Both the position numbers and the translations under genes were made by a program. This document shows, in pieces, positions 41,139 to 54,976 of a stretch of DNA of 54,976 bases. The DNA comes from Zygnema cylindricum. Its lineage: Eukaryota; Streptophyta; Zygnematophyceae; Zygnematales; Zygnemataceae. The notes beneath the pieces are model-generated. The model had not been told where the DNA came from and did not search any database. It worked only from the letters and a program-made list of their open reading frames with translations. The stretch spans positions 97,252-152,227 of the forward strand of contig JBBHKE010001237.1 of the NCBI GenBank assembly GCA_037447655.1, in the 5' to 3' direction. The stretch's first letter is position 1. Each line of letters begins with the position of its first letter.

Positions 41139-41347
41139 ATTTTGGTAAAATATCCTCTACTTCTAACTTTACCACTTTCTAAATATCGCGGCAGCCATGG
41201 CGTGCCTTTGATCCTCACTCTCTCTTTTTAAAGTGGAAATAAATTAGTGAAGTGAACGATTAATTACCTCTTATCAACACCTTAAGCCTCAATCTCTCCG
41301 ACCTCCCTATCTCCCCCAGCACCGGTTGTTCGACCTTCTAACGGGTT

Positions 41348-43381
41348 GTGGCGTTCGAGACCCACAGACCGCAAGTACCGGGTTTGGGGATTTCGGATCT
41401 CTCGAGCGTGTTGAGCAGCACCCAGAAATTGGTTGACATTCTGCGATCGCAGAGTGAGGCTACGGTGGGTGCCAGATTCGTCAACATAGACTGGGAGGCT
41501 AATGAAAGGGAAAGGAAGGAGGCACTTCAACGAGAATTGCTTCTCATTTGAAAGGCTGGACGGAGGGCAAGAGGATTTCTTAGTGGACAGGTAGCTCCTC
41601 CTCAGAGGACAAGTCCTTCTGCGGGAAGACCACCCCGAGGTCAGGCAACTCCGCCTGCGACTCAGGATCCAAAGCCTTCACCGGGATCTAGACCAGAATC
41701 TCCTCTTCAACGGGAAGAGGAGGAATTCAAAGGGCCTAACATGAAGGGTTTGGGTGCAGATTTTCCACCTGAGTCCGCTTCTCGGTTCGGGGGGAGCCTA
41801 CCTTTGTCTCGATGGAGGTTGCTTCCGCCGTGGTGGCTTTGGTGGAGTTATGACCGGACGAGAGGATTCACATTCCCTTGAGGTCGTCAACACCTCATTC
41901 ACCATCTCCCGGAATACCCTCAGATTTTCCAGCTTCTCCTCCTCATTCGTCTCACTCCCCGGGTGCCACCACGGAGCCCCGAGACTACCCTTCTACACTC
42001 GTTTCTCCAGCAGCCGCCGTCCGTGGGTCCCCGGATCCGCCAGTTTTACCGTACAAATACAACGTACCCGCCTACTCCTCGCCTCATCGATTTTCTCCTT
42101 CGTCCAGCCGAGGAATTCCACCTCTCGAGACATCTAAAAGGCGAACTAGGAGACAGACGGTTTTTCGTACAAGGCCCCTACAGTCTCCATCTCCATCTCT
42201 GCCACCGTCAATTTCACAAACTTCGGACAAACATCAGCTCCACATCCCATTACTATAGACACTTTTGAGGGAGGCACAAAACGCTCCTAGATCTAGAGGA
42301 GCCAGGAATCCAACTCCTCCTTTAACATAAAGACCATACTCAGTGGGGGGAAGGATAACACAAGTTACACACGCCCGTCCTAGCGGAGGAGAAGGCGGCT
42401 TAGATCTCGAAGACGCAGATCCAGGGTTCGTTTCACCAGTTCAATTTGTCAGTCCCACCCGGCCTTTTTCGCCCTAGTTCACCAACCTCGTGGAGGAGGA
42501 GAAAATGGGTGACGTAAGAATTTTTAGAGGAGACAGTTCGGGATCGCTTTCTCCTGTTTCGAATTGTTGTGGAAATCTTTCACATAATCCGAGATAAACA
42601 AGCAATTCGAGATGACTTCGAAACTACCCTCTTCCCAATGATGTTCAATTATCTCGTAGGAGGCGCTTTAGCAAATTACAAGAGCGACAACCTCTTCTCA
42701 TGGCTCCCAACATCAAAATTTCAGATCGTATCCTTGATGAGGCAGTCTATGAAGCAGAAGCAAACTTGGTTTCAGCTGCAGCCGCTCCTGTCACAGTCGC
42801 CTTTACAGATGACATGAAACTGCAGGCACAAGGTGAAGCCTATGTCAACCAGCTTCAGGCAATCTAGGCCGCCAGAGCAGCCACCCGGATGGTTGAAGAT
42901 CCTACACCCTGTACCACTCCTTTGACCACCTCGAGGCTCCTTTACACCAAAAGAAATGAATTGGCTATCAAGGAATTTACGAAATCCCATTGCCAGAAAA
43001 GTGAAACTCCCCAGACTCTTTCAACAAATTGTCGAGTTTCTGTCAAAAGAGAAAACTATCAACCATTGATCTCCTAGCTATCGCAACCAAATACTTTATC
43101 ACCCTCCGAAACTCGTTCGAACCCACGGGTCAGACTGCCGCCGATAATTGGATTGCCGAACAAGCCATCGAGGACATCAATCCATCCGCCAAAGAAATCT
43201 CGCTGGCCGCAATGTAGCTTTACGATAACTTCATTCATAGAGAGGCCCAAGAGAAGGCGGTAACCGACAAAACTTAAGGAAAATTTATAGGATTTGCCGG
43301 AGAATTGCCTCCTGACAATGAGGAGTCGGCAAAACTCCTAGCTTTACGGAAGCTTAAGGGAAAACAGGTGGTGGATACACT
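41348..43381 (+). pseudogene. G gag N-terminal and central part (degenerate)
   Basis: Short open pieces occur in several frames. 41348-41551 encodes a charged helical segment (LVDILRSQSEATVGARF, ANERERKEALQREL) and continues past a TGA into a Pro/Arg/Ser-rich stretch. 41878-42258 is Pro/Ser-rich. From about 42700 a helical region follows (ISDRILDEAVYEAEANL, VTVAFTDDMKLQAQGEAYV), then NELAIKEFTKS, 43029-43217 with IATKYFITLRNSFEPTGQ and DNWIAEQAIEDINPSAKEI, and a last piece ending KLKGKQVVD, cut by A2. It looks like a capsid precursor, but I recognise no named gag domain. At least six stops or frameshifts. Confidence 0.5.
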
Positions 43382-44427
43382 TGAAACTCTGAGACCTCCA
43401 TAAGTACTCAGAGTAGACAGCTTCCAAGAAGCCTCTAGGATAATCCTGACCCCTTTGTGTTTCAGCAAAAATAACTGCCACCCTGGCAAACAAAAACCCT
43501 GACCACCTGCACCCCTGTGAAGGAAAGACTCCCCTGAGTCGATAGCAAAAAGAATCTCTGAATTTGCTCCTTTGAGCAGTAAGTTATGGAGGGTCAAAGT
43601 TGACCTTTTGTACAGAAGCTCTCTGGGAGAGGGGGTCCTATCTTCTAATTTTTCTAAGTCCTATCTCTCTCACAGACTCTATCTACTGGTGTACGGAACC
43701 AATCAGAATTGAGTTCCGTACGCAAAAGTACAGCTGTCGGTGTACTTTAGGTACGGACATTGTACGACATGGCCAAAATGTCGACACATGTCAAATCCGG
43801 ATTCGGTGCCGTAATCTCCGGAGATTCCACAATCCAACGGAATTTCGCCACGCGTCATCCGATGTGGCGATGGCCACAAACCGCCGAAATCTTCCTCCGC
43901 GATCTCAGCGCTAATCCCGGCCGTCCGATTAAATTCGGATTTAATCGTAACCGTAATAAATACATGCGCGGTATTTGTTTCACTTACGAAACAAATGCGC
44001 GGTATTGATTTTTGTCCGTACCGTAAGTCGTACATTATATACTTCTGGATCTATGTATCCCGTAATCCATAACAGTTAAATGATTTACCGTACGTATACG
44101 TAATTAAGTAATTATCAAACTATATGGTATGTAACACTACTGCTAGACTTAACGGCTAAGGCTACCAGCTACTTCCTGTTTGCCGGCCGGTAGGTACAAG
44201 GATCAAATCCTGCCGCCGGCACATACCTTTTAAATAAATAAGCTCTAATATAAAATTCCCGTAAACCTCAGGATAGCCAAGGTAGCCATGGCTCTAGCTT
44301 CCTCTCCATCTTCTCAGTGACTACGACAAGTTTGAGAGTTGGAGAGAGAAGTTAGAGATAGACTGCCTCGGCTTCTATATTTCTTTTCAGACCTAGAAAA
44401 TACTAATAAAAACCATTAGTTTCTTCA
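43382..44427 (-). repeat. A2 3' LTR
   Basis: 1046 bp from TGAAACTCTGAGACC to TTAGTTTCTTCA, then CTCCCCTTATTTTC. The last base triplet (TCA) differs from the TACA end of the partner. GTAC cluster at 43691-43765. Confidence 0.9.
44145..44222 (+). other. tRNA-like module in A2 3' LTR (antisense)
   Basis: GACTTAACGGCTAAGGC and GGTACAAGGATCAAATCCTG, ending GCCGGCAC. Confidence 0.5.
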
Positions 44428-44440
44428 CTCCCCTTATTTT

Positions 44441-45622
44441 CTAGTCAATCTTTAATTTCAGACCACACTTCTCCCTGCAAAAAATTAGTTTAGGGGAAGG
44501 CACAGGTTTGGTCATCATATCTGCTACCATCTCACTATCTGGTCTGTACTCTAAACTGATTATTTTGTTTTCTACTTTCTCTCTAACAAAGCTGAATCTG
44601 ATGCCCATGTGTTTGGCTTTAAAATGATATTTAGGATTGGCAGAAATAGCGATTGCTGCCTGATTATCACAAAATATTTTCTGCACACCACTCTTAAGGT
44701 GACCAAGCTCACCAAGCAAAGACTTGACCCACATCAATTCTTTTACAGCAGAGCAAGAGGCCATATACTCAGCCTCTATGGTGGACTGAGCAATAACCTT
44801 TTGCTGTTTGCTACTCCAACAGCAAGCCCCATCACCGACATATAATACATATCAAGAAGTGCATCTCCTCATCGGAGCATCACCATAACTGGCATCACTC
44901 CAAGTAGTGATGTCAGTATTCTCCCCACCCAAATGCAACCATAGATCCCTAGTTCCTACCAAATATCTAAGGACTCTCTTAGCTGCCTCCCAATCTTTCT
45001 TAGTGGGAGCATTTAGACTTCTACTCAGCACTCCTACAGCTGCAGCTAAATCCGGCCGGGTACAATTCATAAAATAGATTAGACTTCCCACTACTTGCTT
45101 GTAAGGAATAGTCTGCATGAACTTCTGTTCATCAGGAGATAATTCCTCGTCTAAGACTATGACTCCTTCTTCCTCACTCCCCTCACTTCCCTTCTTCAAC
45201 TCCATTGGAGTTGTACAACTATTAGCTTTATCCATTTGAAATTTTTCAAGCATGTTCCCTATTGCTTCTTTTTGAGTCAGTTTTATAATTTTCCTTTTTC
45301 GTTCTCTCTCTACTTGAATTCCCAAAATATATCTTGCTTCTCCCATATCCTTCATTTCAAATCTCCCCTTAAGATCGGTTTTCAGTTTGTTAATTTTTTC
45401 CATTGATTTACTTAAAACAAGCAAATCATCAACATAACCTGCAATAAATATAAAACCTTCCTCATCTTCAAGAACATAGATTGAGTGATCTGAGCTGATC
45501 CAAATATATCCCAGACCGGTAAGAAACTCATCAAGCTTCTTATTCCATTGTCGAGGTTCCTGTTTCAAACCATAAAGAGATTTAATCAGCCGGCATACCT
45601 TACTCTCCTCTCCTTCCTCCAC
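44441..45622 (-). pseudogene. A2 RT C-terminal part and RNase H
   Basis: A continuation of the A2 polyprotein after a one-base deletion near 45640. 44852-45622 has the RT active-site stretch AGYVDDLLVLSKS (Ala-Gly where relatives have Ala-Ile) and ends in RNase H WSDASYGDAPMRRCTS at a TGA (44849-44851, relatives Gly). The same frame continues to 44441 through MEAEYMASCSAVKELMWV, IFCDNQAAIAISANPKYHF and FSFVREKVENKI. Only two lesions, this stop and the upstream frameshift, separate A2 from a full-length product. Confidence 0.9.
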
Positions 45623-48600
45623 AAAACCTTCAGTTGTCGCATGAAGATCTCCTCTTCCAATTCTCCATGCAAAAAGGCTGTCTTGATTTCCATCTGATGC
45701 ACTTCCATGTCTTCCGTCGCTGCTAAACTGAGAAGTATGCGGACAGAGGGAAATCTGACCACCGGGGCAAAGGTTTCCTCGTAGTCAATTCCTTCCTTTT
45801 GTGTAAATCCCTTTGCCACTAATCTGGCCTTGTAGCGCTCGATTGTGTTATCTGGGTTCAGTTTTAATTTGAAAACCCACTTACAACCGATTGGTTTTCG
45901 GTTAGGTGGACAGTCCACCAGCTCCCAAGTATCGGCTGCCATGATTGAAGCCATCTCCTCATTGATGGTTGTCTTCCACCGGTTTCTTTCTGGACAAGTC
46001 ATCGCCTCTCCATAAGTTTGAGGTTCATCTTGATGAGATAGTTTATTTACCTTGTTATTAACCTGTTTTTCTTGCAGTCTTTTGCTACTTCTCCTCCCCC
46101 CCTCAAAATCTGAGGCCGGAATAGATGGTTCTCGTGGATTCTTTCGAACAAACTCGGCTTCTCCCCTATCCCTTGATTCCGAATCAATTTCCACCACGTC
46201 TTCCGCTTCGAGTAGAGTTGTCACTGGAGTTTCCACAGCCGAGTCCTTTTCGGTCTGATTTGTTCCTGCAAGAATGTCATCTTCTCTAAAACCTGGATAG
46301 TTAGGAAGCTCAAAGTCATCGGAATTTTTTGACTCAAATCTGATTTTTACTGACTTCGTATATTTGAAGGGATCCACAGACTTTCCTTCATCCATAACTA
46401 CTAGATGCTTTACTAATATTATATCTTCCCTTTTTAGATCATAGACTCTATATCCTTTAACATCTTCATCATATCCTAATAAGTATCCCGGTTTTCCTTT
46501 AGGATCTAGCTTCCAATTGGACCGATCAGTATCTAGACTGAACACTTGACTGCCGGAAACCTTTAAGTGAGATATGTCTGGTTTCCGGCCTGTCCATCTC
46601 TCATAAGGTGTTTGATCTTTTATAGCTGAAGTAAGAACTCTATTCTTGAGGTAGTTAGCACAGTTCATTGCTTCTGCCCAAAACCTTTTTCCTATCTTTT
46701 TATCTGACAACATACTTCTAGCACTATCACTTAGTGTTCTATTTAACCTTTCAACTACCCCATTCTGTTCCGGATTTTCTGGGACTGTCTTTTGGTGTTG
46801 AACCCCATCTTCCCTCAGAAAATCCTCAAACTGGTTAGAAGTATACTCTCCACCATTGTCACTCCTTACTCTCTTGATTGGAGTTTCATGGAGTTTTTCG
46901 CTCCATGCTTTATATTGTCTAAAACAATCCTCAGCTTCGGACTTGTTTTTCAAAAAATATACCCGGGAATACCGAGACCAATCATCAGTTATAGTCATCA
47001 TAAATCTCTTCCCCCCCGGTGAGGGCACTCTAGCCGGTCCCCAAATATCTGTGTGTACTAGATCTAGAAGTTTTTCTCCCTTATAGGTGGCTGTTTTAGG
47101 AAAGGGTAATCTGTGTGCTTTACCTTGAGCACATCCACTACAATCACTTATATCATCACTCTCACTGAACTGAATCCCTTCCACCACTCCCATCTTTTTC
47201 ATCTCTCTTAACTTATCTAGATTCACATGCCCAAGCCTCTTATGCCACATCATAATATCATGAACACCAGCATAGTAAAGTTTCTTCTTTTCATTACTTA
47301 AGATCAGCCTAAACATCCCATGGCTACCTTTCTCAGCAATGAAATAGACATCATCCTCAAAACTAGCAGTAAAGACTCCTTCCCTAGTGCTAGTAAAAAA
47401 ACCCTTATCATCTAATACTGATGTAGAGATAAGATTTTTGTTCAGCTCCGGAATAAACAATACATCGGAGAATGTTAATATGGATGTCTTTCCTTCTACT
47501 AACACTTTTAGATCTACCGATCCTACAAGAGTAGTGGTGACTATCCTCCCATCCCCGTACTCTATCTCTACGGTGGGAATCTTTCTTATCTTAGTGAACA
47601 GGTGTCTATCCTTACACATGTGCATGGAAGCACCTGAATCTACAATCCAGCCTGCTTCACCTTTCAATCCACCGTAAGCACATTTCTGCCTCCGTGGAAT
47701 TTCGACCTCTTTTTTCGCCTCCAACTCCTCATCCAAAAGGAGCTCATCGTCCTCGTCCTCGGATTCAGCCTCAAGTACCTGTGTGACAAGGGCCTTTTTC
47801 TTTCCTCTCGGGCTTCCACCGGTCTGCCCCTCCTTTAACCGAAGCTCGGTTAGCTTAGTGCACTCTGCCATATAGTGCCCCGGTTTCTTACAAAAATGAC
47901 ATAGACCTTTGGGAGCCCTTGGTTCGAACTCATCTGCCTGTTTTTTCTGCTCCCTACCCCCATAGTTTCCGACCGGTTTTCGGGAATCCCTATTCCTCCA
48001 ATCAGTCGCTGTTGCCAAGGCTTGGCCACTCTTTCCTCCCCTTCGGATCTCAATTGTATTCTCTTGAACGAGAATCATCCCTACCACTGAGTTCCATATC
48101 CACCTTGAGTCAGGCAAGTCTTTCACACGGTAAACTATGTTCACGAACTCATCAGGTAACTTCATCAGTAAACAGTTAACTTTTTCTTTTTCATTAAAAT
48201 CTTTTCTTGCACTCTCTAGCTCCATGAAGAGTGTAGCAACCTCATTGCAAAAATCCAACATATTTCCCCCTTTGTATACATACTCCTTAACTTTCTGATC
48301 AGCCAACTGTTGTTGCTGAATCGTACCACTTCGATACATCTCTATGAGAGCCATCCAAAGATCGGATGCTCTTTCTACCTGCAAATGAAGACATGCAAGT
48401 CCTTGAGTGAGATGGCGTAGGATGAATTGCTTTGCCGCCATATTGTTGAAGTCCCAGGTTTCAGTATCATTCTCCTTATTCCTCGGAATAGGTGACATGA
48501 ATGTCGAACCAGTTGCTATTGGTGTGGTCGTCTCCTTCTCCTTTCTTTTGTCCACCACCTCTCTTTTTTTTGTTTCCTCCGTTGAAGGTGGGTCCTCTTT

Positions 48601-48798
48601 CCTGGTGAATCTGGTTCCTCCAAACCCTGGAGGAATTCCAAGACTTGATGGACGCCCCAACCGTCCACTCACTATCCCCCAAAACCTTTTTTCGCATAGA
48701 GCTCCTATCATCATACCTTCCCCGTATATGAAGCCGGTTCCATTAAAGATTGGTACCCTAGAGGGTGGGCCCATAACCTGAAACTCTGAGACCTCCAT
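45586..48798 (-). CDS. A2 gag-protease-integrase-RT(N) open frame
   Basis: 1070 codons. The start at 48798 is inside the 5' LTR (M-E-V-S-E-F-Q, then V-M-G-P through the primer site). In order: gag with PPGFGGTRF and an acidic/lysine-rich linker; zinc knuckle CHFCKKPGHYMAEC; protease IVDSGASMHMC; HHCC WHKRLGHVNL and CSGCAQGKAH; integrase HTDIWG, VRSDNGGEY and VERLNRTL; linker; RT start KWVFKLKLNPDNTIERYKAR, YEETFAPVVRF, MEIKTAFLHGELEE (relatives MDIKTAF). It goes out of frame at RQLKVLW (relatives RQPEGFV) through a one-base deletion. Family A consensus residues of protease and integrase are present. Confidence 0.93.
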   Translation of the reverse strand: MEVSEFQVMGPPSRVPIFNGTGFIYGEGMMIGALCEKRFWGIVSGRLGRPSSLGIPPGFGGTRFTRKEDPPSTEETKKREVVDKRKEKETTTPIATGSTFMSPIPRNKENDTETWDFNNMAAKQFILRHLTQGLACLHLQVERASDLWMALIEMYRSGTIQQQQLADQKVKEYVYKGGNMLDFCNEVATLFMELESARKDFNEKEKVNCLLMKLPDEFVNIVYRVKDLPDSRWIWNSVVGMILVQENTIEIRRGGKSGQALATATDWRNRDSRKPVGNYGGREQKKQADEFEPRAPKGLCHFCKKPGHYMAECTKLTELRLKEGQTGGSPRGKKKALVTQVLEAESEDEDDELLLDEELEAKKEVEIPRRQKCAYGGLKGEAGWIVDSGASMHMCKDRHLFTKIRKIPTVEIEYGDGRIVTTTLVGSVDLKVLVEGKTSILTFSDVLFIPELNKNLISTSVLDDKGFFTSTREGVFTASFEDDVYFIAEKGSHGMFRLILSNEKKKLYYAGVHDIMMWHKRLGHVNLDKLREMKKMGVVEGIQFSESDDISDCSGCAQGKAHRLPFPKTATYKGEKLLDLVHTDIWGPARVPSPGGKRFMMTITDDWSRYSRVYFLKNKSEAEDCFRQYKAWSEKLHETPIKRVRSDNGGEYTSNQFEDFLREDGVQHQKTVPENPEQNGVVERLNRTLSDSARSMLSDKKIGKRFWAEAMNCANYLKNRVLTSAIKDQTPYERWTGRKPDISHLKVSGSQVFSLDTDRSNWKLDPKGKPGYLLGYDEDVKGYRVYDLKREDIILVKHLVVMDEGKSVDPFKYTKSVKIRFESKNSDDFELPNYPGFREDDILAGTNQTEKDSAVETPVTTLLEAEDVVEIDSESRDRGEAEFVRKNPREPSIPASDFEGGRRSSKRLQEKQVNNKVNKLSHQDEPQTYGEAMTCPERNRWKTTINEEMASIMAADTWELVDCPPNRKPIGCKWVFKLKLNPDNTIERYKARLVAKGFTQKEGIDYEETFAPVVRFPSVRILLSLAATEDMEVHQMEIKTAFLHGELEEEIFMRQLKVLWRKERRVRYAG
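48764..48778 (-). other. A2 primer-binding site
   Basis: The minus strand GGTTATGGGCCCACC abuts LTR end GTTTCA. Perfect 15-nt match to the anticodon arm of plant-type initiator tRNA-Met as I recall it. Confidence 0.78.
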
Positions 48799-49086
48799 AA
48801 GTACTCAGAGTAGACAGCTTCCAAGAAGCCTCTAGGATAATCCTGACCCCTTTGTGTTTCAGCAAAAATAACTGCCACCCTGGCAGACAAAAACCCTGAC
48901 CACCTGCACCCCTGTGAAGGCAAGACTCCCCTGAGTTGATAGCAAAAAGAATCCCTGAATTTGCTCCCCTGAGCAGTAAGTTATGGAGGGTCAAAGTTGA
49001 CCTTTTGTACAGAAGCTCTCTGGGAGAGGGGGTCCTATCTTCTAATTTTTCTAAGTCCTATCTCTCTCACAGACTCTATCTACTGG

Positions 49087-49162
49087 TGTACGGAACCAAT
49101 CAGAATTGAGTTCCGTACGCAAAAGTACAGCTGCCGGTGTACTTTAGGTACGGACATTGTAC
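49087..49162 (-). promoter_or_regulatory. CCAAT + GTAC cluster in A2 5' LTR
   Basis: Six GTAC words and CCAATC at 49096-49101. Some sit in short palindromes (CCGTACGC, AAGTACAG, TGTACTTT). At the place of the B TATA box this family has CTTCTGTACAAAAGG, or CTTCTATACAAAAGG in the A1 and A5 LTRs, a weaker TATA-like word. Confidence 0.38.
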
Positions 49163-49541
49163 GACATGGCCAAAATGTCGACACATGTCAAATCCGGATT
49201 CGGTGCCGTAATCTCCGGAGATTCCACAATCCAACGGAATTTTGCCACGCGTCATCCGATGTGGCGATGGCCACAAACCGCCGAAATCTTCCTCCGCGAT
49301 CTCGGCGCTAATCCTGGCCGTCCGATTAAATTCGGATTTAATCGTAACCGTAATAAATACATGCGCGGTATTTGTTTCACTTACGAAACAAATGCGCAGT
49401 ATTGATTTTTGTCCGTACCGTAATTCGTACATTATATACTTCTGGATCTATGTATCCCGTAATCCATAACAGTTAAATGATTTATCGTACGTATACGTAA
49501 TTAAGTAATTATCAAACTATATGGTATGTAACACTACTGCT

Positions 49542-49619
49542 AGACTTAACGGCTAAGGCTACCGGCTACTTCTTGTCTGCCGGCTGGTAGGTACAAGGAT
49601 CAAATCCTGCCGCCGGCAC
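49542..49619 (+). other. tRNA-like module in A2 5' LTR (antisense)
   Basis: GACTTAACGGCTAAGGC and GGTACAAGGATCAAATCCTG, ending GCCGGCACAT. Confidence 0.5.
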
Positions 49620-49824
49620 ATACCTTTTAAATAAATAAGCTCTAATATAAAATTCCCGTAAACCTCAGGATAGCCAAGGTAGCCATGGCTCTAGCTTCCT
49701 CTCCATCTTCTCAGTGACTGCGACAAGTTTGAGAGTTGGAGAGAGAAGTTAGAGATAGACTGCCTCGGCTTCTATATTTCTTTTCAGACCTAGAAAATAC
49801 TAATAAAAACCATTAGTTTCTACA

Positions 49825-51300
49825 GATAGCGGATCCGAACCCGCCATGGGGGGAGATGACCGCGTCTTCCTGTACAACTCTTTCAACTGTCAACAAACAG
49901 GTCATGGATGGAAGCGCTGCCCCCGGAAGCTCAAACGAGAATTGGCTCTCGAGCAGAAGGAATCAAAAAAGTTGAGAGTTGAAAGGACCAAAAAGCAGCA
50001 AGAAAGAAACAAGGGGGAGGATCGAAAGACAAAACCCTTATGAACAAAAGCAATTAGCGTTCGACTCAGTCGTCTGAGACTGCAAAAATGTCACAAGCCC
50101 AGTTGCGACAAATCAAACTTCCAAAATTCGATGACGCGCAAATCTTCAATGAATTGAGGGGCAAATATACCACCGAGGGCTCCAAATGTGAGGCTTGCGG
50201 TTTCATAGGTCACAAAGAAAGGTAGTGTTTCCGAAAGAATGGGGTCCTGAAGGAGATGATGCAATATGCACTGTTTACCAACAAAGGTGAAACTGCTGTA
50301 AACCCTCTCCCTCTCCAGCTTCTTTACCCTTTAGGACACGGCACCACGGAAGATTCAAGACGACAGCCAACAGGTCAAACAAGACTCACCGCGGACATTA
50401 TAATCCAACAGCAGAGCCAGCGACTGGCGACAATGGCTGCAGAATTCGCAGCCCTACGATTGGGATCTCCCTCCGGACTCCTGCTCTGACAGCCGCTCAA
50501 AAACTCCAGCGGAGAAAACAAGAGGTACTACAAAAGCTTTCGGAGCTTAAACAAGAAACCGGGGCGGGCGAAGAAGATGACGATGTGATTAGGTGGGACA
50601 TCGAACCTCCTAAAGCGCATCACGCACAAACCTTCCTTTTTGGAGCCTAGAATGTCGGTGTGGGAGACAGTCCCAAGCAGCTTCGTAACATCGGCGCAGA
50701 GAAGAGACAAGCAAAGACTTGCACAAGGAGACCAAAATAGGAAGACCACTGGACCTTTGTCTTTCACCCCCAGGGCATTCAATCTATACGACAAAATAGG
50801 TCTCAAAATCAAACCCAGAAACTCGCCTCCCCTGGCCGCAAAGAAATTGCCTCCCAAATTCGAGAATTACAGGACAGCAAACACCAAAGAAATGGAAAAA
50901 CAAGCAAAGGAGGAAGAAAAACAGATCAATTAAGACTGGTTCAAAAAATATTTGGCGGAACGTCCGGAAGATACCACACCAGAAACAACACCAAAACAGG
51001 AATCCGACCAAGAAAGAGAGGAAACAAGAGGGGGGGAGCAAGAAAAACTGGAGGAACCCGCATATTCCCCCATTTCGTCGCCAAAAACTCAACCTCCTTC
51101 CTCCAAACCAGCAGTGATGTTAGTAAGGCATCTAATGCCCTACGCCGTCACTCACGTGAAAAAACTAGCCTCTTCCCATAACATGCCGAAAAAAACTCTC
51201 ATCAAGGCCCTCGAAGGAGATTCACTCAGGAGGGGAGAAAATTGACCGGGCAGATCAGGCCAGATTCGTCTTTTGGTCTGCCGACCCAAAGACCCCTATG
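49825..51300 (+). pseudogene. G gag C-terminal part with two zinc knuckles
   Basis: It continues the G frame after A2. Knuckle 1 (49879-49920) reads S-X2-C-X4-H-X4-C (NCQQTGHGWKRC): the first Cys codon is TCT instead of TGT. It is followed by a Lys/Glu-rich helix to 50040. Knuckle 2 (50187-50228) reads CEAC-GFIG-H-KER-stop-C, a correct C-X2-C-X4-H-X4-C spacing with a TAG at 50223-50225. After it come a helical region with IIIQQQSQRLATMAAEFAALRL, an acidic segment (GEEDDDVIRWDIEPP) and Gln/Lys/Glu-rich coil sequence to about 51240. Knuckles of this type bind genomic RNA in retroviral and retrotransposon Gag. Several stops and frameshifts. Confidence 0.7.
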
Positions 51301-51327
51301 ATAGAAACGGATTATAAGACGTAATCG

Positions 51328-51759
51328 GTGGCGCTAATCCTCAACCAGACGGGAAATTTCAAACTCAACGGATACGGCGGATGTCACGATGCAGTGGTCG
51401 ATACCGGAGCACTCCCAAATCTAATTACCACTCTGCAGCAAATGCTTGAGGAACTCCGACCGGAAATCTGCTCCATTAACATCTGCCAAAGCACAATTAG
51501 CAGTGGGAGCCAGCTGGTCCACCGAATTATCAAGGCCATGTTAATCTAGTTTTCCAATGAGGCGGGTCAGGAGGTCCGAATTCAGCTTCCCTTCTTGGTG
51601 TTGGAAGGTAAGCACTTTGAAATTCTGCTGGGGATGGCCACCTGGACAAGGTTGAATATGGGATTAAGTGTGTTGAAAGAGCAGTTCACTTTTCGGGATC
51701 CTAAGGATCCGGAATGGGTCAAGGTGGTGGCACCCAGGATTTATAAAATAGGGGGAAAA
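51328..51759 (+). pseudogene. G aspartic protease (retropepsin-like, broken)
   Basis: Two open pieces in one frame (51328-51549 and 51595-) separated by a TAG at 51547-51549. The active site AVVDTGALPNLI is at 51394-51429 with DTGA at 51400-51411. The second conserved motif, hydrophobic-hydrophobic-Gly, is FEILLGMATW at about 51619-51648. The spacing of about 75 residues between the two fits a single-lobe retropepsin. Position after the zinc knuckles fits Gag-PR order. The stop and the later frame change before the methyltransferase make it non-functional. A pararetrovirus-type protease is an alternative. Confidence 0.7.
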
Positions 51760-52218
51760 ACAATGTTTCGTAGCCAAATGTTATCCTGTTTATGCTACCC
51801 ATACTCCAACAAAGCTGCTTGCCAGCGCTACCGATATCGCATACGTGATATAGCAATTCCCTATTTCCAAGCGGTGGGAAAAGGCATACCAGAGCAGATT
51901 AACACAGATAGCAAAACTTCGGCGGGAAGTGGACCAGTCATTCGCAGCTATATTGGCCAAGGAGAAAATTCCTTGGGAAGAATCTTCGGAGGTTCCACCC
52001 GAGAATCAAAAATTCCATCGACAAGTGGTGTCATTATCAATTCTAGATTCCAAACTCTGGATATTATCCCTATTCTCTGGAATAAGCTTGGACCTAGAGG
52101 CTGTATTGAAAGCCGGATATAACGTGGAGTCTTATGTGACCGTGGAAATCTCCCCTGATCCTCGGGCAGTCATTGAACACCGACAACAACAGCTCCACCA
52201 CTTATGCCCCCAGCAACT
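51760..52218 (+). pseudogene. G DNA (cytosine-5) methyltransferase, N-terminal part (motifs I-II)
   Basis: The frame from about 51795 (KLLASATDIAYVI, TAG, then KRWEKAYQSRLTQIAKLRREV) leads into 51929-52218. Motif I, the AdoMet-binding loop, is WILSLFSGISLDLEAVLKAGYNV cut here to LSLFSGIS at 52064-52087 (family LFSGIGG-like). Motif II is YVTVEISPDPRAVIEHR, with the conserved Glu at 52145-52147. The frame is cut at Gln-Leu 52214-52219 by solo LTR F. The segment between protease and motif I is helical and charged and could be a spacer or targeting arm. The layout places the enzyme inside the polyprotein of a retroelement. Confidence 0.78.
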
Positions 52219-53371
52219 TGTTGGAATTCAAGTGTTTTTTATAGGTCTAGAGATTGCAAAATAAAAAGCAAATAGGAGATATTGACAACCTGCCTCTAAC
52301 TCCTCACTCAAGTCCCCACACTTATCGCAATCACTTAAGACTGGAGGAGGAGTTAGTAAGCTAAGTCGTTGTGAGAGACAAGTGCTTTTTCATGGGTTTT
52401 AAAAGGGAGCTTGACGGTGATTTGATCCTTACTCATCGACAAAACAAGATTTTGCTACCTTATCTTAATAGTCTATATCAAGCGATAGAGTATATGAGGC
52501 GATAAATATATAAATTCTACATTTCTAATTCATTTAACGTGAACTATACAAAATGCATAGAAACAAGAGGTAAAGTCAAATACGGTACGGTTATGAAATA
52601 AATGTCGTGCATTTTGTTTGACATCGGAAAGAATACCGGGTAAGTATTTATGACGGCTACGATTGAAATCCGGATTTGATCGCACGGCCGCGAAAGATGC
52701 CGAGATCGCGGAATAGGATGTTCGCGGTTTGCGATCACCGCCGCATCGAATGACACGTGGCAAAACCACATTGGATTGCGGCAACTCCGAGATTACGGAA
52801 ACAAATTCAAACAAGACATGTGTCGACATTTTGGCCATGTAGTACGATGGACGTACAGAAAGTACACCGGCACCTGTTCTTTTCTGTACGACACAGTATT
52901 GTAATTGGTGCCGTACTTCAGTAGATAGAGCTTTAGAGGGAGATAGGACTTAGGAAAATTTTGTAGATAGGACCCTCTCTTTGAGAGATCTTCTGTACAA
53001 AAGGTCATCTTTGACCATTCATAACAATCAATTTACTTAACCATTTTCAGTGATTATTTTTGTTGCGGACTCAAGGGAGTCCAGGCTACACAAAGATGTA
53101 GTTGGTCAGAGTTTTTGTCTGCCAGGGTAGCTTCATTTCTAAGGGAAAGTCAAAATGGGTGAATGTGTCTAAATCTCATATTCTAACTTGGCATTGTGTG
53201 GTGGAACTGAGCACACGAAAAGTGTTATATCACAGTGGTGAAGTTGTATTGGGGTTCTGATTGTCAAGGGGTCACTCATTTGGGTTTATATGAAGTGGGA
53301 GTTGGCACTATCTAGATTAACTTCTTTTGGATCTGCCTACTCTGAGGGCCGATGGAGGTCTCATCGTTTCA
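52219..53371 (+). repeat. Solo LTR F inside the methyltransferase (TSD CAACT)
   Basis: 1153 bp from TGTTGGAATTCAAG to GTCTCATCGTTTCA, with CAACT at 52214-52218 and 53372-53376. It is in the same superfamily as A: GGTCTAGAGA near the U3 start, CCTGCCTCTAACTCC, a GTAC cluster at about 52830-52920 and the GGAGGTCTCA end. No internal region. Diverged from the A consensus. It interrupts the methyltransferase between motifs II and IV. Confidence 0.88.
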
Positions 53372-53376
53372 CAACT

Positions 53377-54251
53377 TCCAATATCCGCCATCTCCAGATC
53401 TCACCGAAGCCTTCCCCAAAACTTAGACAATATCGTGAAACCCAATTTAGCATTGCTGGAGCGAGTAGATATGGTAATGGCATGATGGCCATGTCAATAA
53501 TACTATCTAGCAGAGAAAGGCGAGGGACATCAAGACATCCGAAGTCGACCTTCTTCCAGATGATCAAATTAATTTCTTGGCTCCAACAGTCCCAAAACAC
53601 ACTAGTGTGGTACGTTTTGGAAAATGTTCACCCGAAGATGATAAAAGTAAACAGGTCGCCAATAGCTGGAATCAAGTTAAGGAGATTTTAGGGGCTCCCC
53701 TCGTTTTTGATGCAGCACAATTGGGTTTAAATGCTCACACACTTTGGGCTTACTAGACCAATCTGATACCTCTATCAGTCCTAAACCAGCTCTTACAGAA
53801 CCACAACACATATCCTCAAATTATTCTGCAACAAATTCTACGGCCACGGCGGATGGCCACTCCAGTTACCAAGGCTCATCGTCCTCCGTATTTTCAATGC
53901 AAAAAACCACGGGCACAACTTCGAGCCCTGCCAACCTTGGTTTCCTTCCCAAACAGCCATGCGTATGAGAATGGAGCAGTGGCAATGACATTCAACAGCA
54001 AAATGGGAGTTTGGACAACACCAAAGGTGAAAGAACGAGAACAAGCAATGGGATCCCAACCTGCCACCACAACAGCATCAGCTATTTCACACCTGAATAG
54101 GTGCAGCCTACTTGGACATAGCATGGATCTCATTACAATCACTTTGGTGATAAAACATTCTCTTGCCTTTTCCAATTTACACTCTCCTCAGAAAAGGGCT
54201 AGCTGCCTTCAAGCTCCCAGACCAGCGCAACGTAGCAGCAGAGCAACTTAG
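53377..54251 (+). pseudogene. G DNA (cytosine-5) methyltransferase, catalytic and C-terminal part (motifs IV-X)
   Basis: Resumes as QLPISAIS in the same frame as the left half. Motif IV: the catalytic Cys lies in WPCQ (TGT at 53492-53494), bracketed by TGA at 53483-53485 and TAA at 53498-53500 where glycines are expected, then AEKGEGHQDIRS. Motif VI: WYVLENVHP with ENV at 53620-53628, one frame over. From 53631 a third frame gives EDDKSKQVANSW, PLVFDAAQLGLNAHTLWAY, a TAG at 53754-53756 where Trp is expected, then TNLIPLSVLNQLL (motif VIII region). The target-recognition region follows. Motif IX is TPKVKEREQAMG (ERE at 54033-54041) and motif X is RCSLLGHSMDL (about 54099-54131). Motif X spacing looks closer to the DNMT3/DRM side than to DNMT1, tentatively. 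Confidence 0.82.
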
Positions 54252-54292
54252 TAGCGCAGCAACATAGCAACGCAGCATAGCAACGTCGTAGA
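54225..54292. repeat. GCAGC/GCAACGTAGC-rich stretch
   Basis: Irregular repeats of AGCGCAGCAACATAGCAACG-like words directly after the methyltransferase and before the H LTR. The same words occur beside the E 3' LTR at 34065-34175. Confidence 0.5.
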
Positions 54293-54293
54293 A

Positions 54294-54604
54294 TGTAGAT
54301 CGAACGGTAAAGTTCTCGAAGGTGATTTTGGATAGATCTCGGTTAACCGTGAAGGTCCACGTGCACAGTTGTACAGTACTAGGTTGACTAGCAGCTAGCT
54401 AGTTTAAATAGTCAAGTAAGCCAAGTGAATAGGAGACTCTTCGAGTAGATCTTTTCAGTGAGCACAACCTTGTATTCTTTTCCAAGTAATAAAGTGCAAC
54501 TTTGTATGTTAGTGATGTGTGCTCCTACTGTTGCTACGGGAAGATCCTTAGTGTTTTTCGCTGTGCATTGTGGCGTGCTGTGGTGCGTTATTGTCCCTTT
54601 TACA
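54294..54604 (+). repeat. H 5' LTR (start uncertain)
   Basis: The right end CTTTTACA at 54597-54604 is followed by a canonical-type primer site. The left end is placed at TGTAGATCGAACGG (54294) because it begins with TG and follows the end of G. An AATAAA lies at 54487-54492. The resulting length of about 311 bp is short but normal for gypsy LTRs. The partner LTR lies outside the window. Confidence 0.55.
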
Positions 54605-54605
54605 C

Positions 54606-54618
54606 TGGTACCAAAGCG
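54606..54618 (+). other. H primer-binding site (3'-end type)
   Basis: TGGTACCAAAGCG follows the LTR by one base. TGG at its start pairs with the CCA end of a tRNA, so H uses the usual 3'-end priming, unlike the copia elements of this window. The tRNA identity cannot be assigned with confidence. Confidence 0.6.
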
Positions 54619-54638
54619 ATTTCCCGTGACTCGCCAGC

Positions 54639-54976
54639 ATGGATGAACACGGCGTATCCACTATTGAAATGATAGCGCAAGTTCTTAGGGAGTTAGAAAA
54701 TGTTAGAATACAAAATGCGCAGCTGAGCAACACCGTCGCAGCCTTGGAGTCTCGTCTTGGGGAGCGACCTCATGGAGGCATGGAGAGAGACTTCAAGAGA
54801 CCGAAATTAAGACTTCCTGACGATTTTGACCCTGCAAGACACAAGAACTTGGACACATGGCTATTCTCCATTGCGAACTATCTCGAGAATTTTCCTTGCC
54901 TATCGGACCGTGAGAAGGTTCACTACGCGGGTGGTCTTTTTAAAGGGGCAGCAGGGGCATGGTGGAGGACATTGGT
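54639..54976 (+). CDS. H Gag, Ty3/gypsy-like, N-terminal part (runs off window)
   Basis: The ATG at 54639-54641 is 34 nt after the LTR end, and 112 codons are open to the edge. Residues about 10-45 form a Gln/Asn/Leu-rich coiled-coil-like helix (AQVLRELENVRIQNAQL). From about residue 58 the retrotransposon Gag capsid-type domain begins: KLRLPDDFDPARHKNLDTWL, a WLFSIANYLENF segment, REKVHYAGGLF and AAGAWWRTL. These are the hallmarks of the Gag domain in gypsy-type elements. No frameshift is visible in the part shown. Confidence 0.85.
   Translation, partial: MDEHGVSTIEMIAQVLRELENVRIQNAQLSNTVAALESRLGERPHGGMERDFKRPKLRLPDDFDPARHKNLDTWLFSIANYLENFPCLSDREKVHYAGGLFKGAAGAWWRTL

What the first reader, a model, noticed from the sequence alone, without database searches (positions are those of the whole stretch)
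51760..54251. DNA methyltransferase carried inside a retroelement
After the gag zinc knuckles and the DTGA protease of element G, and in the same orientation, the sequence encodes C5-methyltransferase motifs in canonical order: LFSGIS (I), VTVEI (II), WPCQ (IV, catalytic Cys), ENV (VI), DAAQLG...TNL (VIII), KEREQAMG (IX) and LLGHSMDL (X). Retroelement-borne C5 methyltransferases have been reported in charophyte algae and dinoflagellates; they could methylate new cDNA copies. Here the enzyme lies right after the protease with no RT between, and is a fossil split by an LTR. The position within the polyprotein and the family of the host element may be new.
Basis: partly seen in the sequence, partly recalled or inferred. 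Interest (0 to 1): 0.92.

Follow-up and report, generated by a model that had tools for sequence, protein, structure and literature searches.

The report
Retrotransposon carrying a DNA methyltransferase
The window holds a broken copy of an abundant retrotransposon, in a plant-like genome, that carries its own DNA-methylating enzyme just behind a stop codon that has been kept in every copy read, so the enzyme is probably made only when ribosomes read through that stop.

Summary
Confirmed and extended. The window carries a decayed Ty3/Gypsy-type element (about 41325-54221) whose Dnmt3-class C5-methyltransferase (MTase) lies between protease and, in other copies, reverse transcriptase. Better-preserved copies read gag-PR-MTase-RT-RH-IN-PHD finger. 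Family A, which includes the window copy, has an in-frame stop at the PR/MTase border in 28 of 28 copies read in frame (25 TAG, 3 TAA), followed by CAA in 26 of 28, although copies differ by up to about 60% in protein there; readthrough is the best explanation. Family B is one open frame. Four of eight copies examined show split direct repeats A-coding-B-GC-A-B instead of plain LTRs, although they encode a DDE integrase; the two with the most alike repeats have perfect 4-bp target duplications. Repeats of this type, Gypsy domains and Dnmt3 in Pol were already reported for KnitGypsy-Dnmt3 of Klebsormidium (de Mendoza 2018), so the kind is known. Readthrough, PHD and target site are not mentioned in that paper's main text. 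No CpG footprint of self-methylation was seen.

The parts
41325..43376 (+). 5' part of the fossil's gag region (several broken frames)
   Evidence: tblastn of L012/L013 gag, e.g. 42046-43376 at E=2.8e-94
43403..49801 (-). copia element inserted in the fossil's gag; LTRs 43403-44424 and about 48778-49801, 98% identical
49825..50246 (+). 3' part of gag with a CCHC zinc-knuckle motif (50187-50228)
   Evidence: tblastn of L012 gag; translation; Pfam sub-threshold
51024..51850 (+). protease region, DTGA at 51400-51411, and linker up to the stop
   Evidence: tblastn E=7e-76
51851..51853 (+). in-frame TAG followed by CAATTC; conserved recoding-type stop at the PR/MTase border
   Evidence: 28 of 28 family-A copies read in frame have a stop here
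51854..52218 (+). MTase, N-terminal part: leader without Met, motifs I (LFSGIS) and II
   Evidence: tblastn E=3e-33
52219..53371 (.). solo-LTR-like insertion, partly related to the window's copia LTRs; CAACT at 52214-52218 and 53372-53376
53381..54221 (+). MTase, C-terminal part: motifs IV (PCQ), VI (ENV), VIII (degenerate), IX, X; broken frames
   Evidence: tblastn E=1.5e-87
54228..54976 (+). start of another Gypsy-like element (LTR-like stretch about 54228-54602, shared with L040; gag-like frame from 54630) that cuts the fossil off; the contig ends at the window end
   Evidence: Gypsy assignment by eye

Best explanation
The window copy is a dead member of family A of a high-copy Ty3/Gypsy-type retroelement whose Pol carries a Dnmt3-class C5-MTase between protease and reverse transcriptase and a PHD finger after the integrase. 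Shown: domain order, conserved catalytic motifs, constraint on the MTase, the conserved in-frame stop just before it, split direct repeats in four copies, 4-bp target duplications in two of them. Inferred: most ribosomes stop at the UAG and make Gag-PR; a minority read through and make Gag-PR-MTase-RT-RH-IN-PHD, so that the MTase enters the particle in the same low dose as RT and IN. Inferred further: the cDNA passes through a form in which its two ends abut (the GACA-GC-TGTC junction), is methylated de novo by the co-packaged MTase, and is inserted by the DDE integrase at chromatin read by the PHD finger, the mark making the new copy look like host DNA.
For: Domain order in open frames of relatives (PR of both families and PHD of family A score just below Pfam's cut-offs). 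Dnmt3 class: profile against PDB gives DNMT3A 4e-19, HaeIII 1e-8, DRM2 5e-7, DNMT2 1e-5, DNMT1 0.08. Motifs in family A: PCQ in 38 of 40 readings, ENV in 40 of 40 (41 rows, at least two of them the same copy twice). Constraint: median dN/dS 0.27 in 34 usable family-A pairs of 91, 33 of 34 below 0.5. Stop: 28 of 28 copies, 25 TAG and 3 TAA; next codon CAA in 26 of 28, while identity across the border falls to about 41%. The frame from stop to motif I is open in 21 of the 24 copies in which motif I was placed; in the two divergent subfamilies 10 of 11 copies, window included, have no Met between stop and motif I, so an internal start could not make an intact enzyme there. RT loci: 12 of 12 have the MTase upstream. 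Repeats and target duplications.
Against: Readthrough was not measured, and the six bases after the stop fit the recalled plant/viral consensus UAG-CARYYA at five of six. In 13 of 13 subfamily-1 copies a Met lies ahead of motif I. Methylation of cDNA has no sequence support: CpG observed/expected is 0.62-0.72 in four family-A stretches and 0.87-0.95 in four of B (window fossil 0.72 and 0.50) against 0.35-0.64 in four copia stretches of the window, and CpG transitions between the A1/A2 repeats are not clearly more frequent than between copia LTRs. In family B motif IV reads ECQ, not PCQ, in 8 of 8. A complete A-coding-B-A-B set was seen in only 4 of 8 copies examined, and perfect target duplications in only 2 of those 4.
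Confidence: 0.6

Rival explanations
1. The MTase is kept for something other than marking its own cDNA: for example nucleic-acid binding, RNA methylation, or remodelling host methylation near insertions; catalysis on the element's DNA is not the selected trait.
For: No CpG depletion or clear excess of CpG decay in these elements relative to copia; family B has ECQ in motif IV; the 2018 paper found no activity of the Klebsormidium enzyme in yeast and calls that inconclusive.
Against: Catalytic Cys and ENV are conserved in nearly all copies read, under purifying selection; SymbioDIRS enzymes methylate CG de novo.
Confidence: 0.3
2. The stop is not read through: PR-MTase are joined by splicing, or the MTase-RT frame is translated from a separate start.
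For: Not excluded by any transcript data; subfamily 1 has a Met 18 residues after the stop, ahead of motif I, in 13 of 13 copies.
Against: PR and MTase align through the stop in one frame; 10 of 11 copies of the other subfamilies lack a Met before motif I; the stop and the bases after it are among the most constant of the region.
Confidence: 0.12
3. The A-B-A-B arrangement is not a structural class but the result of adjacent insertions or assembly error around ordinary LTR elements.
For: 4 of 8 copies examined could not be shown to be complete: C1407 shows only the 3' end, C783, C544 and C2577 show no A2-B2; C1374 carries a further insertion of about 3.7 kb in this region.
Against: The same B1-GC-A2 junction occurs in five copies of two families, and in two copies a 4-bp duplication flanks the whole A-coding-B-A-B unit; the same repeat type was reported for KnitGypsy-Dnmt3.
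Confidence: 0.07

Closest known systems
KnitGypsy-Dnmt3 of Klebsormidium nitens (de Mendoza et al. 2018, PMC5890265; section 3 parts 1-4 of 7 read, plus term searches)
   Same: Gypsy-type domains, Dnmt3-class MTase inside Pol, repeats arranged as in DIRS elements, MTase under purifying selection; streptophyte host there, streptophyte-like host here
   Different: Its sequences and Fig. 4c were not available, so homology and domain order could not be compared. The main text holds no mention of readthrough, PHD or target site. It says K. nitens has fewer copies than Symbiodinium; no number was seen, so copy numbers cannot be compared.
SymbioDIRS-Dnmt3 (dinoflagellates, same paper)
   Same: Dnmt3-class MTase in Pol; A-coding-B-A-B repeats
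   Different: Carries a tyrosine recombinase; here a DDE integrase, with target duplications in two copies
Readthrough retroelements: Tca2 (UGA between gag and pol; PMC2194720, start of abstract seen in a listing); murine leukaemia virus and SIRE1 (recalled)
   Same: An in-frame stop separates the upstream from the downstream product
   Different: Here the stop lies after PR and directly before an MTase, not at a gag/pol or pol/env border
Chromoviruses (recalled)
   Same: Chromatin-reader domain at the C-terminus after integrase
   Different: A PHD finger instead of a chromodomain

Membership tests
Ty3/Gypsy retrotransposon | Pol order RT-RH-IN with rve integrase | tested here: met
   Pfam order in L009, L012, L013, L016; PR upstream seen in L012 and L014 below Pfam's cut-off; MTase between PR and RT
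Ty3/Gypsy retrotransposon | Two plain LTRs bounding the element | tested here: not met
   In C1344, C829, C449 and C1374 the unit ends at B2, not at A2
KnitGypsy-Dnmt3 kind | Dnmt3-class MTase inside a Gypsy Pol | tested here: met
KnitGypsy-Dnmt3 kind | DIRS-like A-coding-B-A-B repeats | tested here: met
   4 of 8 copies examined complete, a fifth (C1407) at its 3' end only
KnitGypsy-Dnmt3 kind | Ka/Ks of the MTase below 0.2 | tested here: inconclusive
   Median 0.27 for 34 family-A pairs and 0.19 for 3 family-B pairs; pairs with saturated or very low dS left out
KnitGypsy-Dnmt3 kind | Sequence descent from the Klebsormidium element | not testable with these tools
DIRS/Ngaro elements | Tyrosine recombinase instead of DDE integrase | tested here: not met
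   rve and H2C2 found; no tyrosine recombinase among Pfam hits of the frames scanned
DIRS/Ngaro elements | No target-site duplication (recalled) | tested here: inconclusive
   TTGG in C1344 and AAGG in C829; C449 differs at one of four bases, C1374 shows none
Type-I (UAG-CARYYA) readthrough signal | Six bases after UAG fit CARYYA (consensus recalled) | tested here: inconclusive
   CAATTC in 24 of 28: five of six positions fit, the last is C not A
Type-I readthrough signal | Measured readthrough | not testable with these tools
   needs a reporter or ribosome profiling

The most novel reading that the evidence does not exclude
These elements are a hybrid replication class: a DDE-integrase retrotransposon that uses split repeats to rebuild a cDNA with abutted ends (GACA-GC-TGTC, the palindromic sum of both outer termini), integrates from that junction in the manner of circle-forming insertion sequences, and, in family A, delivers a Dnmt3 enzyme only in the readthrough fraction of Pol so that the circular cDNA is methylated before a PHD-guided insertion.
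Probability: 0.25. Interest if true: 0.82.

Novelty: new variant of a known kind. Interest (0 to 1): 0.55.

Why it matters
Retroelement-borne Dnmt3 was reported from one charophyte and from dinoflagellates. Here another, streptophyte-like genome carries more than a hundred such MTase stretches in two families with different expression strategies, and one family holds a stop codon exactly in front of the MTase across deep divergence. That makes two questions testable: whether dose control of a retroelement methyltransferase is selected, and how an element with a DDE integrase replicates with split direct repeats.

Tried and rejected
Pfam on the window pieces: no MTase; the fossil is recognised only through relatives. 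CpG depletion as a sign of self-methylation: not seen. Modular exchange at the MTase/RT border, suggested by 53% versus 83% identity between subfamilies: not needed, because the MTase is also the more divergent part in the comparisons with subfamily 2 and within family B. A reassigned UAG in the host: unlikely, since whole gag-to-integrase frames run without any UAG (2322 codons in L009); the host's code was not tested otherwise. A 5743-aa open frame in C961: a run of N. A hairpin after the stop: only five pairs, one with changes on both sides; weak. Viral contigs: one distant relative, 29% identical. Plasmid search with the RT: three distant hits, 31-41% identical. SAM_LFY and RbcL searches for the host: no hits; for SAM_LFY no control rang either. 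The 18S search never got an answer. Host DNMT genes were not surveyed: the PF00145 search scored 123 of 782 candidates; one of the 123 (L007) is an intron-flanked exon closest to PDB entries including 4fsx (recalled as maize chromomethylase); most of the other rows were not inspected one by one. MTase-free relatives of these elements were not sought. No MTase tree was built; PDB scores were used instead.

Full report
What is in the window. The + strand from about 41325 to 54221 is one decayed retroelement, cut into pieces. Its gag starts at or before 41325 and runs to 43376, is split by a copia element (43403-49801, LTRs 98% alike), continues at 49825-50246 with a CCHC motif that now holds a stop, and is followed by a protease (DTGA at 51400-51411). 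A TAG stands at 51851-51853, and the methyltransferase (MTase) begins with the next codon. It is split by a solo-LTR-like insert (52219-53371, CAACT on both sides) and ends near 54221, where another Gypsy-like element starts. The window ends with its contig, so what lay beyond cannot be read. Pfam alone does not see the MTase in these pieces. Relatives with open MTase frames do: E=1.5e-87 and 3e-33 for MTase parts, 2.8e-94 for gag and 7e-76 for PR. In the window motifs I, IV, VI, IX and X are readable and motif VIII is degenerate.

How common it is. The genome (352.8 Mb, 2689 contigs, unnamed) gave 123 PF00145 stretches out of 782 candidates, of which 123 were scored. One of the 123 (L007) is a host-type exon, and most other rows were not inspected singly. 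The window's MTase end matched 150 places, the scoring limit, of 1178 candidates, itself included; the nearest other copy is 73% identical. The RT of family A matched 150 places, again the limit, of 3151 candidates. Of the best 12, 12 have the MTase directly upstream.

Anatomy of better-preserved copies. Two families were distinguished. Family A (the window, L012, L013 and others): gag-PR, stop, MTase-RT-RH-IN-PHD. Gag of the family-A copies seen at length (L012, L013) is itself partly broken. Family B (L009, L011, L014, L016 and others): gag-PR-MTase-RT-RH-IN-PHD without a stop at the border; L009 is one open frame of 2322 codons within the fetched piece, given as 2395 by the genome search. 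Sub-threshold Pfam scores should be noted: PR 22.3 bits in L012 and 19.9 in L014 (cut-off 24.3); PHD of family A 21.5 and 22.4 (cut-off 24); zf-CCHC 16.6 in L009 and 20.5 in L014 (cut-off 20.8), and no CCHC hit in the two gag frames of L012. PHD of family B is clear (40-46 bits in four copies), as are RT, RNase H, integrase and MTase. Between A and B identity is 42% in the MTase, 55% in RT, 64% in RNase H and 56% in integrase, consistent with one acquisition before the split, though no tree was built.

Class of the MTase. A profile of eight MTases from the genome ranks DNMT3A first in the PDB (4e-19), then HaeIII (1e-8), DRM2 (5e-7), DNMT2 (1e-5) and DNMT1 (0.08); single-sequence searches also put DNMT3A first. 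Motif IV is PCQ in 38 of 40 readings of family A but ECQ in 8 of 8 of family B; motif VI is ENV in 40 of 40 of A and EN[VI] in 8 of 8 of B (the 41 family-A rows include at least two copies counted twice, L028/L056 and L025/L060). Among 14 family-A copies with long open MTase frames, 34 of 91 pairs had dS between 0.1 and 1.5; median dN/dS was 0.27 and 33 of 34 were below 0.5. Among all family-A pairs with a computable ratio (45) the range was 0.14-1.39. Family B gave 3 such pairs of 21, median 0.19. Pairs outside that dS range were left out, and only copies with open frames were used, which favours constraint. The MTase is more divergent than RT in each of the four comparisons made, e.g. 53% against 83% identity between family-A subfamilies.

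The conserved stop. In one search, 26 distinct family-A places (window included) could be read through the border, and two more. All 28 have a stop at the same codon: 25 TAG and 3 TAA. The next codon is CAA in 26 of 28, and the six bases CAATTC occur in 24 of 28. A 29th, L065, is frame-shifted on both sides and is not counted; it too shows TAG, followed by CAG, at this place. L021 has lost the region, L068 is N there, and L052-L063 do not reach it. Motif I could be placed downstream in 24 of the 26 copies, and 21 of those 24 have no stop before it. In the two divergent subfamilies 10 of 11 copies (all but L038) have no Met between the stop and motif I; in subfamily 1 all 13 have one 18 residues after the stop. 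A stop kept over this divergence, between two constrained domains, is best read as programmed readthrough. The consensus UAG-CARYYA is recalled; a small hairpin downstream is weak.

Terminal repeats. C1344 (family B): A1 931 bases, coding, B1 242, GC, A2 (100% identical to A1), B2 (99.6%). The element starts TGTCATG, ends CACGACA, and is flanked by TTGG on both sides. C829 has the same build, with A repeats 99.7% alike and AAGG on both sides; C449 has it with older repeats (about 89-90% alike) and flanks TCAT/GCAT. C1374 (family A) has it with 97-98% repeats, an extra insertion of about 3.7 kb and no visible duplication. C1407 shows B-A-B at its 3' end only; C783, C544 and C2577 did not show A2-B2. 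So 4 of 8 copies examined are complete A-coding-B-A-B, and 2 of those 4 have perfect 4-bp duplications. The inner junction GACA-GC-TGTC was found in five copies of both families and is the palindromic sum of the two outer ends. Integrase is of the rve type with recognisable D, D and E (residue assignment by eye).

Test of self-methylation. CpG observed/expected: family A 0.62-0.72 (four stretches), family B 0.87-0.95 (four), the window's fossil 0.72 and 0.50, copia of the window 0.35-0.64 (four), whole window 0.63. CpG transitions between paired repeats: 2 of 12 and 0 of 13 differences (C1374, two pieces), 0 of 4 (C829), 16 of 80 (C449), against 7 of 18 and 14 of 94 in two copia LTR comparisons (for the second copia pair it was not shown that both LTRs belong to one insertion). 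There is no footprint, but samples are small and some copies very young.

Host. 88 chlorophyll a/b-binding matches. For two of the encoded proteins the best PDB match overall is a multi-domain LHCI protein (9vfj) that gains by matching twice; the best single-domain matches are entries that I recall as moss or seed plant, ahead of those recalled as Chlamydomonas, and for one protein they are Lhcb3-type chains (organism names are not in the answers). Together with the exon whose best PDB match I recall as maize chromomethylase this points to a streptophyte. The species was not determined.

Literature. De Mendoza et al. 2018 (PMC5890265; section 3 parts 1-4 of 7 read, plus term searches) reported Dnmt3 in the Pol of a Klebsormidium Gypsy element with DIRS-like repeats, so the kind is known. 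'Readthrough', 'PHD' and 'target site' do not occur in its main text; its figures and supplement were not available. A 2025 survey (PMC12344493, passages only) mentions DNMT3 in retrotransposons, citing that paper; a 2023 review (PMC9861306, passages only) was also looked into. Searches listed no other title on such elements, but the other listed papers were not opened, and one search matched 7,223 papers of which only 8 were listed, so it decides nothing. Searches on split repeats with Gypsy and on PHD fingers with integrase listed no title on such an element; those papers were not opened. Tca2 readthrough was seen as the start of an abstract. Most subscription journals and preprints are not in this library.

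Verdict. What is added here is the conserved stop in front of the MTase, the PHD finger, the target duplications with a DDE integrase and the palindromic inner junction. Whether the Klebsormidium elements share these could not be checked. The function of the MTase remains inference.

Noticed in passing
family-B loci L004, L009, L010, L011, L014, L015, L016, L017: Motif IV of the family-B MTase reads ECQ instead of PCQ in 8 of 8 copies; the Pro-to-Glu change next to the catalytic Cys looks unusual and its effect is unknown.
   Followed up: partly
L007 1498-1800: Intron-flanked exon of a host C5-methyltransferase (best PDB match recalled as maize chromomethylase); no retroelement MTase match in the 3.2-kb locus.
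   Followed up: partly
window 5900-49801: The rest of the window holds many copia elements with related LTRs (about 79-98% alike to the one at 48800-49822).
   Followed up: no
contigs C519 and C2590: Clusters of chlorophyll a/b-binding genes: nine matches at E<1e-32 on C519 and five on C2590.
   Followed up: no
L013 9453-9790 (C544) and L017 (C783): Copies with A-coding-B but no A2-B2 found and no matching flanks; could be recombination products or another integration form.
   Followed up: partly
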